Shown here piece after piece: positions 605 through 53,461 of a DNA stretch of 64,000 nt. Position 1 is the first letter of the stretch. Every line of letters begins with the position of its first letter. The DNA is from Xanthostigma xanthostigma (lineage: Eukaryota; Arthropoda; Insecta; Raphidioptera; Raphidiidae), in NCBI GenBank assembly GCA_963575645.1, contig OY754468.1, positions 9,796,001 to 9,860,000 on the forward strand. The letters are read 5' to 3'. A model generated the notes under the pieces. The model worked only from the letters and a program-made list of their open reading frames with translations, ran no database searches and was not told the DNA's origin. A program made the position numbers and the translations under genes.

Positions 605-1056
605 ACAAGATAAAAATAATTGTTCATAGTTCGGATTAAACATTTTCGTAAAAAAATATGAGACCAAATCCAAAAAAATTAATTTAATTAATTACGATCG
701 TTTCGACCTAGATCAGGTCATCTTCAATTAGAAATGTAAATAAAAAATTGATATTTAACTAAAAAACTACATTTCGTGTTTAACGAAGTTAAATATCGGC
801 GGATAAAACTTAATCCTTGTATTTTAGTTAAATATCAATTTTTAATTTACATTCCTATCTGAAGATGATCTGATCTAGGTCGAAACAATCGTAAGTAATT
901 AATTTAATTTTATCTGGATTTGGACTCTTTTATATTTTTTACAAAAATAATTGATTTAGTTTTTATAAAATATACATGGTTGAAAAACACCTTGAAAATA
1001 GCTAAAACAAGTTTATAAAATCGATTACATATCTTTATATATATACAAATCTTAGT
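605..1056. mobile_element. Penelope-like fold-back insertion with two hammerhead-like cores
   Basis: This is an inverted repeat (arms about 658-772 and 818-928) inserted in the SINE with a 13-bp target duplication. Each arm carries a hammerhead-like core, facing in opposite directions. The plus-strand one is at 859-890, the minus-strand one at 693-731. Target duplications of this length and hammerhead motifs fit the Penelope-like retroelement group. No reverse transcriptase is present, so the copy is non-autonomous or truncated. Confidence 0.6.
850..895 (+). ncRNA. Hammerhead ribozyme-like motif
   Basis: CTGAAGA at 859-865 is followed by one unpaired base, helix II GATCT/AGGTC, then GAAA at 882-885. 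A two-pair helix III (AC with GT) closes a four-base loop, and A would be the cleavage base. This satisfies the conserved core of type I hammerheads except for the extra base before helix II. The motif on the opposite arm has T in place of the first core C. Confidence 0.5.
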
Positions 1057-49350: not shown

Positions 49351-50230
49351 ACGTGAATTTTTCTATAACGAGTTTCATGATATTATTTTTCTTTACGTTT
49401 TTCCAAGAAATAAGCACACAGACATTGCACGTGAACAACTCTTAACAGATGTTATTGGAATTACATATTAGTGTTTTGAAGTGTAGTAAAAGTGAGATAT
49501 CCATTAGTTACGAAATTAGATCACAGATCCATTAACTGGAAGTGAAAGATGAAAGCTGAATTGAAATAAGTTCGTGTTAGGTTATTACTGACTCGACTCC
49601 CTTCGTTCAACTGACACTACAAAAGCCAGGCATCGTGTCTTCAAATTTCCGCTCCCCGGATTGTACTTATATTACTCTCGTTAAAATTGCTCGGGGGAAT
49701 TATATGGTTTATATGTTATACTTATAACATTCCAAATTTTAATTTGGAGGTGGAAATATGGTTAAAAAATATTTTTCTGTTGTTTATACAAGCATCTAAT
49801 AAACATGAAAATATTGAAAATTATAAAAAAAATAGAAAAATCATTTTTAAAAGATAAAGTAAAGATAAAGTAAAATCGATACTGATCGCTTCTAAATTGT
49901 ATTCAGTCGAGGAATATTTTAAAATAACTTTTTAAAAAAATTTTATATTATATCTGTAAATTTTGTATTTTGCTTTGACAAACTCTCATCTATGATGTTA
50001 AATGGAGTAAATCAATGTTATTATTATTATTATTATTTTTTTTTTACCCCGTATTTTCTGCTCCAAATTAAAATTAGAAATGTTGGTAGTTCCGGAAGGT
50101 GAGACTTTTTGTTGAAAATTTCCGACTCTTTTAGAAATTTTTGTGATTTCAGATATCTGCAATAGTTTTTGAGATATTCGCAAAAAACCAAACCCCTCTT
50201 TCTTTTAACTAAAATGTTTATTATCAATTT
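49351..50230. other. Unannotated stretch
   Basis: No feature recognised except an ATT run near 50020-50036. Confidence 0.4.
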
Positions 50231-50410
50231 TGTAGACAACGTCTATACAGTGGCCAAAGGATCCAGAAAAACGCAATTACAGATATTAAATTTGCATTTA
50301 TTGACTAACGTTTCGAAGGATTTACCTTCATCCTCAGAGATAAATGCAAATTTAATGTCTGTAATTGCGTTTTTCTGGATCCTTTGGCCACTGTAGACGT
50401 TGGCTACTAA
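50231..50410 (-). mobile_element. Fold-back built on a complete hammerhead-like core
   Basis: The arms 50231-50300 and 50341-50410 pair over about 70 bp. The 40-base centre, read on the minus strand, is a hammerhead core. The arms continue helix I directly, so the transcript of either end would fold as one long stem capped by the ribozyme. The sequence of the arms is unrelated to the other fold-backs of this type in the window. Confidence 0.7.
50295..50345 (-). ncRNA. Type I hammerhead ribozyme-like motif (best example)
   Basis: Minus strand: CTGAGGA, one extra base, helix II GAAGG/CCTTC with a five-base loop, then GAAA. Helix III is AC/GT closing GTTA, with C as cleavage base (complement of 50303). 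Helix I begins with one pair, a bulged C, then GCATTTA with TAAATGC. All invariant core bases are present. The one departure is an extra U between the core and helix II, which the other copies share. Confidence 0.65.
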
Positions 50411-51119
50411 TTTTTGGATCGCTTGTTCTTTACTTACTTTAAATTAATGTTTATAACTATTGCAATTTTTTCGTCGCCTACATCAATTTTTTTAAAAAGT
50501 TTCTAGATGTCATTTCGAATCGAATGACACCAGGATCATAAATTTTTGGTGAAGGCGGACTGGAATTCATCAAAAAGAGACATGTGAACCAGACTACAAG
50601 TTGAATTTACTTTTCATATTTTGTTTCCTTCAGTCCATTAGTGGGCTTAATAATTGTATGATTTTGAGAGTCACGGAATTATCTGAGTTTACCTCAGGCT
50701 CTAGTAAGGATAAATCAGCTTTTGATTGAAACAAACATAGTGTATATAGAGTTTCGCCACAACACGACGCTCCACGAACAAAGCGTCTAGTATTTAATAC
50801 AACAAACAGCTCTATCCTTCGGGACAGAATTTATCGCGGTTGCTCCGGAATTTGTTTGTATACATCACGTAAAATGCTATCGGCACACTTTAATTGCCAT
50901 CTTGTTTGCTGCCCTGTACAAATGGCGGAAAACAAAAGCTGTACAATGCTCCATCTCTTTTATTGTACGCTTTTCGAATGTCGTTTGTTTCGAATGAAAT
51001 GATAAGCACACCACTAAAAGCAATTGGCCCATAGATGGCAGGTAAAATTTGATCGTACTGACAACTACCGGTCAGAATCTCAACTCACAAATTATATAGT
51101 CATTTTTATGAAAATAATT
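50411..51119. other. Unannotated, partly less AT-rich stretch
   Basis: 50740-51000 looks single-copy, with AATTGCCATCTTGTTTGC and ACAAATGGCGGAAAAC, and has neither inverted ends nor a reading frame. Possible unique or regulatory DNA. Confidence 0.35.
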
Positions 51120-51739: not shown

Positions 51740-51865
51740 CTAGACATTTTTAAGGTCCTGAAGAAGGCATGAATTTCTGCCGAAACGTTGACGATTAAAT
51801 GTTGTTCTAGTGAATAAAAATTGTTTTTATATTTAGCCTTGTATCCCGTATAATTTTATCATTTA
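51740..51865 (+). repeat. Single-ended Penelope-like unit with hammerhead-like motif
   Basis: CTGAAGA at 51758-51764, an extra A, helix II GGCA/TGCC, and GAAACGTTG from 51782. The downstream part (GTTCTAGTGAATAAAAATTG, TAGCCTTGTATCCCGTATA) equals the right arm of 31029-31255. The inverted left arm is absent, which shows the un-inverted form of that family. Confidence 0.55.
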
Positions 51866-52142: not shown

Positions 52143-53038
52143 GGTGTCGCTGTCGCTTTTTTTCACTATCGCTTTTCATTTGTTTAAAAAATTAAACCAG
52201 GGTTGAAAATAGTCGAGCCTGTAGCAATGGCGTTGTTTGTATGGCGTTCTTTGTGTAAGATATTTTATAAATAGGTATCTGTAAGTATATAAAAGAATCA
52301 AGAAAAGAAACAACTTACTTTAAAGATGTTGTGAAGCGAACACTGCGACTTTAAATGTCTAATGTCAAATGTCAGGAACAAAAAAGCTCACCTGAAGTAA
52401 AATATGTTGATTCTAAACAATAGCGTATTATTTATACATGATGTATAAAAATAGATTGTATGTACTATATTGCCGCTTTCAGCCAAAAAGACGTATCGTA
52501 TTTTAGAGTTTGCTATCTGCCGACCAGAAAATTTGGTTTGATAATGATCTGAAATTATAAAAATGTATCTCTGCAAAGGTCACATGTGACATATAACGCT
52601 AATTTTTTTGCTAATTTTAGTAATTATATCAAGCTAATTATAGACAAGACGGCATTTTAATGTTTATAATACGTTTCATTAACCATATCAAGTTTGACAT
52701 ATGTAATTTGACTTAAACAGCGAAAAGTATCTGAAGATGCTGTTATATAGACAACGAAACGTTCACAAAAAGGTGTTATATAATTGTTGATATCTCAAAA
52801 TTGATTATATTATGCTGTACTTTCAACGTTTTAGCTTAGGACGGTAGTATCCTGCCGAAAGATTTAATCCTCTGGAGTTATTTAGATTCTCTTTGCGAAG
52901 ATTTTTTGTACACTTAAGTGTTTCAAAAACGAGAAGAAACTATTTGAATTTTCTTTGTTTCCAAACATCACATATTATACGGTGCCTTGGCTGATCTCAG
53001 AATCAGTGAATCTGTTCCAAGGAAATACGGAATTATCT
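52143..53038. other. Unannotated stretch with one hammerhead-like scrap
   Basis: CTGAAGA at 52731-52737 and GAAACGTTC at 52756 enclose an imperfect helix II. Nothing else was recognised. Confidence 0.4.
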
Positions 53039-53046
53039 GTCGAGGG

Positions 53047-53461
53047 CAGGCATGCCAAACTCATATGATATTGCGGGCCACATTATCTAATTTGTATTAT
53101 GTTGGAGGCCGCATGTTTTTAATGTTAAAAAATATTAATAAAATACGATTGTTAGAATGATTATATTATTAGACTCAATAAAAAATATAGAATAGTTACT
53201 TCTTACCACAACAGTTTTATTAGCGGATGTACATTTCGGGAGCTATGCTCACTAACAGTTTAGTGTTTGCTGAAGATGAGAGCATAGCTCCCGAAATGTA
53301 CATCCGCTAATAAAACCGTTGTGGTAAGAAGTAACTATTCTATATCTTTTATTTTTGTTTCAACCACAGTGCTCTTAATATTTGTATTAGACTCAATGTT
53401 TTTTTAGCGTCTCGGCGGGCCGCAATCACTGTATTGGCGCGCCGCGTCTTTGACATCACTA
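53047..53461. mobile_element. hAT-type element with a hammerhead fold-back inside
   Basis: CAGGCATGCCAAACTC at the left and TTGACATCACTA at the right, with inner GCGGGCCACATT and CGGGCCGCAATCAC blocks, follow a common hAT-type pattern. Flanks GTCGAGGG and GTCTAGAG agree at 6 of 8. The 53186-53345 fold-back lies within. Confidence 0.55.
53186..53345 (+). mobile_element. Fold-back with hammerhead-like core at the inversion point
   Basis: Arms 53186-53250 and 53277-53345. CTGAAGA (53270-53276) lies just outside the right arm. Helix II GAGAGC/GCTCCC has five of six pairs, followed by GAAA. Helix III is AT/AT closing GTAC, with C as cleavage base. Compared with AC/GT elsewhere both sides of helix III have changed, keeping the pair. 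Confidence 0.6.

What the first reader, a model, noticed from the sequence alone, without database searches (positions are those of the whole stretch)
50231..50410. Fold-back whose two arms are the extended helix I of a hammerhead ribozyme-like core
Seen: a 70-bp inverted repeat with a 40-base centre. On the minus strand the centre has CTGAGGA, helix II GAAGG/CCTTC, GAAA, a two-pair helix III around GTTA and a cleavage C. Known: Penelope-like elements carry minimal type I hammerheads with tiny helix III. Inference: the inversion junction coincides with the ribozyme, as if the mirror copy were joined where self-cleavage ends the RNA. One extra base before helix II departs from the textbook core and is shared by the family.
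Basis: partly seen in the sequence, partly recalled or inferred. Interest (0 to 1): 0.8.

Follow-up and report, generated by a model that had tools for sequence, protein, structure and literature searches.

The report
Ribozyme-bearing folded-back jumping gene copy
This is one of many head-to-head copies of a small parasitic DNA element, related to Penelope retrotransposons, that carries a hammerhead-type ribozyme motif; such elements are known, but here an intron lies inside the ribozyme motif and the two-armed copies carry a single 'tail', which hints at how these elements copy themselves.

Summary
In detail: a near-perfect fold-back (window 50226-50413) with a complete minimal hammerhead core on the minus strand (50303-50337). 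It is one insertion, with a 9-bp target-site duplication, of a non-coding family (244 matches to a 43-bp unit core in a 623-Mb genome). The anatomy is that of Penelope-like elements (PLEs): head-to-head units, variable TSDs, and a ~32-bp tail on one arm. The 48 two-armed copies whose outer ends I hold each have one tail (one borderline), which fits two-sided target-primed reverse transcription from two adjacent start sites. Cores of four families in this genome agree, with compensatory changes in helix II; one family encodes RT plus GIY-YIG. New lead: six copies keep a complete GT-AG intron between most of helix I's 5' strand and the core, while many copies are joined exactly there. In silico support for a splice-assembled ribozyme is mixed; the hammerhead fold costs 5-12 kcal/mol in every sequence tested. 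No cleavage, splicing or mobilisation was measured; no autonomous partner was found.

The parts
50213..50221 (.). left target-site duplication AATGTTTAT
50222..50339 (-). untailed unit, carrying the complete hammerhead core
50303..50337 (-). minimal hammerhead core CTGAGGA-U-GAAGG/CCTTC-GAAA-C(GTTA)G-TC; predicted cleavage between 50303 and 50302
50294..50302 (-). helix I 3' strand AATAAATGC (in unrearranged copies it can pair with exon-1 GCATTTG plus U)
50340..50408 (+). tailed unit, truncated at the second base after its own cleavage site; forms the mirror arm
50409..50438 (+). PLE-type tail (interval between the two presumed RT start sites), present on this arm only
50446..50454 (.). right target-site duplication AATGTTTAT
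650..937 (.). second fold-back with two inward-facing hammerhead-type cores (693-727 minus, 859-893 plus), another family
53180..53384 (.). third fold-back: two-armed copy of the pLTR of the RT+GIY-YIG PLE family (L076), core 53270-53304 plus, tail on the right arm only, 13-bp TSDs at 53167-53179 and 53385-53397

Best explanation
A non-autonomous derivative of a Penelope-like element (PLE), about 300 bp in its full form and without an ORF, inserted by a PLE reverse transcriptase/endonuclease acting in trans. Shown: a dispersed family with TSDs; a unit that ends at one of two adjacent 3' points about 32 nt apart (without or with tail); head-to-head two-armed copies with one arm of each kind; a PLE-type hammerhead core near the inner end of the unit; both arms share the source-lineage allele at a polymorphic site. 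Inferred: the endonuclease opens both target strands, each 3' end primes a cDNA on element RNA, one cDNA starts at the distal site (tail) and the other at the proximal site, and the two truncated cDNAs are joined head to head, often with short overlaps or filler. Inferred: the template is usually uncleaved at the hammerhead. The window copy is one such event, whose tailed arm happens to stop one base from the cleavage site.
For: 244 matches (<=3 mismatches) to the 43-bp unit core, reversed-pattern control 0. TSDs: 32 of 48 two-armed copies share >=9 nt at their two outer flanks, against 1.7% of cross-pairs. Tail: 48 of 48 have one tail; highest score in 1216 random stretches 24. Single-unit copies: 8 with tail, 14 without, so independent choice would give at most half mixed copies (0.5^48 = 4e-15; copies taken as independent, about 42 junction classes). 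Arms agree at ref 259 in 39 of 41 two-armed copies (55% expected, p 1e-8) and at ref 209 in 37 of 39 (82% expected, p 0.02); within-copy arm identity exceeds all 2000 permutations; of 167 variant cases 149 are in one arm only. The anole PLE protein extends both strands and starts at two adjacent sites that bound the tail (PMC11167929, main text read). A PLE with RVT_1 and GIY-YIG is in this genome with the same core type and its own one-tailed fold-back in this window.
Against: No autonomous element with these ends was found: the ends of L076 show no convincing similarity, nor do 10 upstream flanks of other PLE copies, and the closest of 59 PLE protein places to any of 100 unit places is 49 kb away; mobilisation in trans is inference. 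The anole study saw no difference in start site between top and bottom strand, so strict pairing is not predicted by it. One second end (L027, score 27) is borderline for a tail; the weakest accepted tail scores 30 (L008). 16 of 48 copies show no shared word of 9 nt at the flanks. The copies came from similarity searches that score only the best candidates, and favours copies with junctions like this one. No RNA, cleavage or insertion data.
Confidence: 0.85

Rival explanations
1. One reading: the hammerhead cuts the RNA and the mirror copy is joined at the new 5' end, so the inversion junction marks self-cleavage.
For: In this copy the tailed arm stops at the second base after the cut; L016 stops exactly at it.
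Against: 90 of 96 arm ends lie upstream of the cut, that is, the template was not cut there; 4 of 96 lie within 1 nt, two of them doubtful by eye; the 7 two-armed copies fetched by unit core alone (L087-L093) have none there. In the anole PLE ribozyme mutants insert normally in vitro and no reads were found to begin or end at the cut (PMC11167929).
Confidence: 0.05
2. Self-priming: one cDNA snaps back and copies itself, or an antisense RNA self-primes (proposed for rotifer PLEs).
For: Palindromic centres; arms share source alleles; proposed in PMC3846280 (passages seen).
Against: A snapped-back copy should repeat the tail on both ends; 48 of 48 have it on one. One arm may hold sequence the other lacks at its inner end while lacking the other's tail (L052: tailed 252-304, untailed 1-283).
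Confidence: 0.07
3. A fold-back or MITE-type DNA transposon with terminal inverted repeats that merely contains a hammerhead-like word.
For: Near-perfect inverted arms, many copies.
Against: Ends are unequal (one tail), TSD length varies, arms are truncated independently, single-unit copies exist, intron-containing and intron-less copies coexist.
Confidence: 0.02
4. Animal retrozyme (small element moving through circular RNA made by hammerhead cutting of tandem repeats).
For: Size and type I hammerhead as in PMC7229834 (about 170-400 nt; passages).
Against: The loci read are inverted or single, one partly tandem (L042); minimal helix III; many copies start at one 5' end upstream of the ribozyme, not at the cut.
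Confidence: 0.05

Closest known systems
Penelope-like elements (Penelope/Poseidon clade; rotifer Penelope families; anole PAc)
   Same: Inverted pseudo-LTRs, an optional ~30-40 bp tail on one of them, TSDs, minimal hammerhead in the pLTR, introns reported in pLTRs (PMC3846280 passages; PMC11167929 main text; PMC6155905 passage; PMC11722881 passage).
   Different: This element has no ORF and is about 300 bp; partner not identified; the intron sits inside helix I of the hammerhead; the one-tail rule is counted here.
Small hammerhead variants of PLEs (Lunse et al. 2017, whose title says they cleave as dimers; Cervera and De la Pena 2014)
   Same: Minimal core with little or no helix III, in PLE context (titles and citing passages seen; the papers themselves are not held).
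   Different: Extra U or A before helix II in the 11 cores aligned here; whether those papers describe it I could not check.
Metazoan retrozymes
   Same: Small non-coding element with type I hammerhead.
   Different: Not in direct tandem in the loci read but for one, minimal helix III, no sign of monomers cut at the ribozyme.

Membership tests
Penelope-like element | ORF with reverse transcriptase and GIY-YIG endonuclease | tested here: not met
   The longest unbroken copies are about 300 bp. A scan for frames of 120 or more codons in L001-L045 shows one RT-like frame, beside L044, by my reading of non-LTR type and not part of the element; later loci were not scanned. Hence filed as a PLE-derived non-autonomous element, not as a PLE proper.
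Penelope-like element | inverted pLTR arrangement with a ~30-40 bp tail on one copy | tested here: met
   48 of 48 two-armed copies, one borderline
Penelope-like element | TSDs of variable length | tested here: met
   32 of 48 share >=9 nt against 1.7% of cross-pairs
Penelope-like element | hammerhead motif in the pLTR | tested here: met
   same motif in the RT+GIY-YIG element L076
Hammerhead ribozyme | core CUGANGA, GAAA, H17 and three helices | tested here: met
   by sequence; helix II compensatory changes across four families; one extra base before helix II
Hammerhead ribozyme | the fold is favoured by a single RNA | tested here: not met
   forcing the core costs 5.0-12.0 kcal/mol in the 9 intron-free sequences (window copy, 4 intron-less singles, 4 intron copies joined); free minimum folds of the window copy pair CUGA with UUAG
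Hammerhead ribozyme | Rfam hammerhead model | tested here: not met
   no hammerhead family matched here; RF00163 in the genome lists only two loci of another family, 33.6 bits, cut-off 34
Hammerhead ribozyme | self-cleavage | not testable with these tools
   no RNA data or assay
Metazoan retrozyme | direct tandem repeats | tested here: not met
   14 of 14 adjacent pairs inverted; one partly tandem locus, L042; circular RNA not testable
Spliceosomal intron within helix I | GT-AG boundaries, pyrimidine tract, coexisting exactly joined copies | tested here: met
   6 complete introns of 116-171 nt; 150 matches to the joined form, 100 listed, 94 of these with TTTG at the joint
Spliceosomal intron within helix I | RNA evidence of splicing | not testable with these tools
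   no transcripts available
Spliceosomal intron within helix I | joining enables helix I | tested here: inconclusive
   with the core forced, helix I's 3' strand pairs upstream at about 0.9 or more in joined L069 and L072, 0.78 in intron-less L030, about 0.4 or less in L074, L066, L044, L043, L033; unjoined L069 and L072 give 0-0.07, unjoined L074 reaches 0.91 at two positions

The most novel reading that the evidence does not exclude
The hammerhead of this family is a split gene: a spliceosomal intron separates most of the 5' strand of helix I (exon 1, GCATTTG) from the catalytic core (exon 2, TACT-CTGAGGA), so the ribozyme can only assemble in spliced RNA; and the two start sites of reverse transcription are used once each, on RNA of one source, by two polymerases primed from opposite target strands. 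Splicing state would then gate RNA cutting, and the one-tail rule would be a genomic record of a paired, two-sided priming complex.
Probability: 0.25. Interest if true: 0.75.

Novelty: new variant of a known kind. Interest (0 to 1): 0.5.

Why it matters
How Penelope-like elements insert, and what their hammerheads do, is described as open in papers seen (abstract of PMC11167929; passage of PMC7761336). This genome offers a large natural data set: hundreds of unit copies in which start sites, truncation points, junctions and splicing state can be read per insertion. The one-tail rule says that the two start sites are not chosen independently, which an in vitro assay of paired priming could test directly. 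The intron placement suggests a testable link between splicing and ribozyme assembly.

Tried and rejected
Rfam hammerhead search of the genome listed only two loci of another, classical family. Looking for the autonomous partner: GIY-YIG and RT protein searches, the ends of L076 and 10 upstream flanks gave no convincing match to this unit; the closest of 59 PLE protein places to any of 100 listed unit places is 49 kb away. A tree of 53 exon-2 stretches is star-like; 5 intron copies do not form one clade (5 changes, shuffled mean 4.9), weak data. A 3'-splice-site-like sequence before the core of the 9,479-match family (6 of 6 copies read) could not be tested, since no joined copy was seen. Folding with the core forced: helix I forms in joined L069 and L072 but not unjoined; L074 and L066 are unclear; the cost of the hammerhead fold is lower when joined in only 1 of these 4 (L072 7.2 against 11.4; L069 5.6 against 4.7; L074 9.6 against 7.8; L066 12.0 against 5.8 kcal/mol). 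L070 has a one-base shorter core that the script did not accept, and L098 ends too soon after the core, which stopped that script before the window copy was folded; the window copy and four intron-less singles were folded later. One script failed before output.

Rows dropped: L020, L021, L026, L046, L062, L073 as duplicates; L023, L042, L059 from the tail count as broken or tandem; L063 counted apart because only 38 bases of its second end are held; L068 has no junction. In one search one row (L028) was cut one base too early, and 9 of 11 rows come from two families, so the shuffles overstate independence; the slid controls (best 0.273 against 0.738) keep relatedness.

Print: for an intron inside a hammerhead I rely on four searches; one search lists 11 papers with all of Penelope, hammerhead, intron and splic-, of which I saw passages of five (PMC6155905, PMC7761336, PMC7229834, PMC11722881, PMC6431247) and searched the word intron only in PMC6431247 (and in PMC12910113).

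Full report
What is there. The fold-back at 50226-50413 is real. On the minus strand its centre is a complete minimal hammerhead core with one extra U before helix II. Rfam's hammerhead models do not see it, and the free fold of the RNA pairs CUGA with UUAG instead; forcing the hammerhead costs 7.2 kcal/mol. The insertion is framed by a 9-bp duplication, 50213-50221 and 50446-50454.

It is a family. The genome (623 Mb, 28 contigs) holds 244 matches to a 43-bp unit core with up to 3 mismatches, reversed-pattern control 0. I read 74 loci with the unit: 49 two-armed, 22 with one unit, 3 broken or partly tandem. Against one copy as ruler (L033, 306 bp: 5' end at 1, core at 157, first base after the cut at 192, proximal 3' end about 267-275, distal end at 306), single-unit copies start at various points, often at the 5' end or near 140, and run to the proximal end (14 copies) or to the distal end (8 copies). 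The ~32-nt difference is the tail. Two of the tail-less singles (L030, L045) show no clear duplication by eye and may be halves of something larger.

Two-armed copies. Units face each other head to head: 14 of 14 adjacent pairs among 100 typed places. In 48 of 48 copies whose two outer ends I hold, one end has the tail and the other does not; L027's second end is borderline (27 against a maximum of 24 in 1216 random stretches; weakest accepted tail 30, L008). Independent choice would give at most half. TSDs: 32 of 48 share at least 9 nt against 1.7% of cross-pairs, so most are single insertions. Arm truncations are scattered over the unit in about 42 junction classes, 26 of 48 with overlap, 4 flush, 18 with filler. 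Arms agree at ref 259 in 39 of 41 copies against 55% expected and at ref 209 in 37 of 39 against 82%, while 149 of 167 variant cases are in one arm only: both arms come from RNA of one source lineage and decayed separately.

What it works like. This is the published anatomy of Penelope-like elements: inverted pLTRs, a tail on one of them, TSDs (PMC3846280, passages). In the anole PLE the protein cuts and extends both target strands and starts at two adjacent internal sites that bound the tail (PMC11167929, main text). The simplest reading here is two-sided priming with one cDNA from each start site, joined head to head. Snap-back copying should place tails at both ends. The new part is the count: use of the two sites is paired. 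The anole work saw no strand difference in start site, which neither predicts nor excludes pairing within one event.

The ribozyme. Four families in this genome share the core: this one; L076 (782-aa protein with RVT_1 and GIY-YIG); the fold-back at 650-937, whose link to a PLE rests on core and shape alone; and the family of L078 (upstream of a PLE-like frame; 9,479 matches to a core of its kind). Over 11 cores helix II is 100% paired with two-sided changes at 3 of 5 pairs; covariation 0.738 against 0.273 shuffled (0 of 500) and at most 0.273 when slid; the count of pairs with two-sided change (4) is not above shuffles (202 of 500); helix III has one two-sided change and does not fit the fourth family in the columns used (4 of 11 cells). 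All 11 have one extra base (U or A) before helix II. Here the U makes A-U-G at the start of stem II; in the anole PLE the ORF begins at that place; in this family the frame meets a stop after 8 codons, so this is only a parallel.

Does cutting shape the copies? 90 of 96 arm ends run past the cut, so templates were mostly uncut there. The long helix I of this copy arises because the mirror arm replaces the native 5' strand.

The intron. Six copies (L066, L069, L070, L072, L074, L098) carry 116-171 nt with GTGAGT at one end and a pyrimidine-rich end with AG at the other, between CATTTG and TACTCTG. In a pattern search for the intron-exon form 13 of 53 matches look intron-type; of the 11 of these that I read, 10 have the intron's 3' part (18 nt in L100) and L095 does not. 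The joined form has 150 matches; 100 are listed, 34 of them exact, and 94 keep TTTG at the joint. Introns in PLE pLTRs are in print (PMC11722881 passage; it cites Arkhipova 2003, whose content I recall only). An intron inside the hammerhead I did not find in print within the limits told under Tried and rejected. Exon 1 supplies 7 of 8 possible helix I pairs. With the core forced, joined L069 and L072 form helix I with probability about 0.9-0.97 and unjoined 0-0.07; L030 0.78; but L044 0.36, L074 0.42, L066 0.42 or less, L043 and L033 0.04 or less, and the cost of the hammerhead fold is 5-12 kcal/mol throughout. PLE hammerheads are reported to act as dimers (title of Lunse et al.), which a single-unit fold does not test. 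Splicing and cutting were not observed.

Other fold-backs here. 53180-53384 is a two-armed copy of the L076 family's pLTR: 13-bp TSDs, core intact on one unit, tail on one arm. 650-937 has two inward-facing cores.

Verdict. Observation confirmed; PLE link supported; junction-at-cleavage not supported. Not filed as a PLE proper, for want of an ORF. Interest lies in the paired start sites and the intron-split ribozyme motif.

Noticed in passing
window 650-937 (cores 693-727 minus, 859-893 plus): Second fold-back with two inward-facing hammerhead-type cores of another family.
   Followed up: partly
window 53180-53384: Two-armed copy of the RT+GIY-YIG PLE family's pLTR with 13-bp TSDs, intact core and one tail.
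   Followed up: yes
window 51758-51797 and 52731-52767: Weaker matches to the PLE hammerhead model (24.3 and 20.9 bits), not in clear fold-backs.
   Followed up: no
L001/L002 (G000:C1:5417285, C1:46574205): Classical type I hammerheads (RF00163, 33.6 bits, cut-off 34) with inverted partner sequence nearby, beside a 448-codon open frame; another hammerhead-bearing repeat.
   Followed up: no
L078, L102-L107: 9,479-match hammerhead-core family; 6 of 6 copies read have a T-rich tract and AG seven bases before the core, resembling a 3' splice site.
   Followed up: partly
ref positions 139-142 of the unit (arm ends of L009, L011, L024, L025, L032, L035, L039, L041, L090, L091): Recurrent 5' truncation point at TTGACGGC just upstream of helix I: 10 of 96 arm ends, unexplained.
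   Followed up: no
L095: CAG extra at the joint (TTTG-CAG-TACTC), as if an alternative 3' splice site had been used.
   Followed up: no
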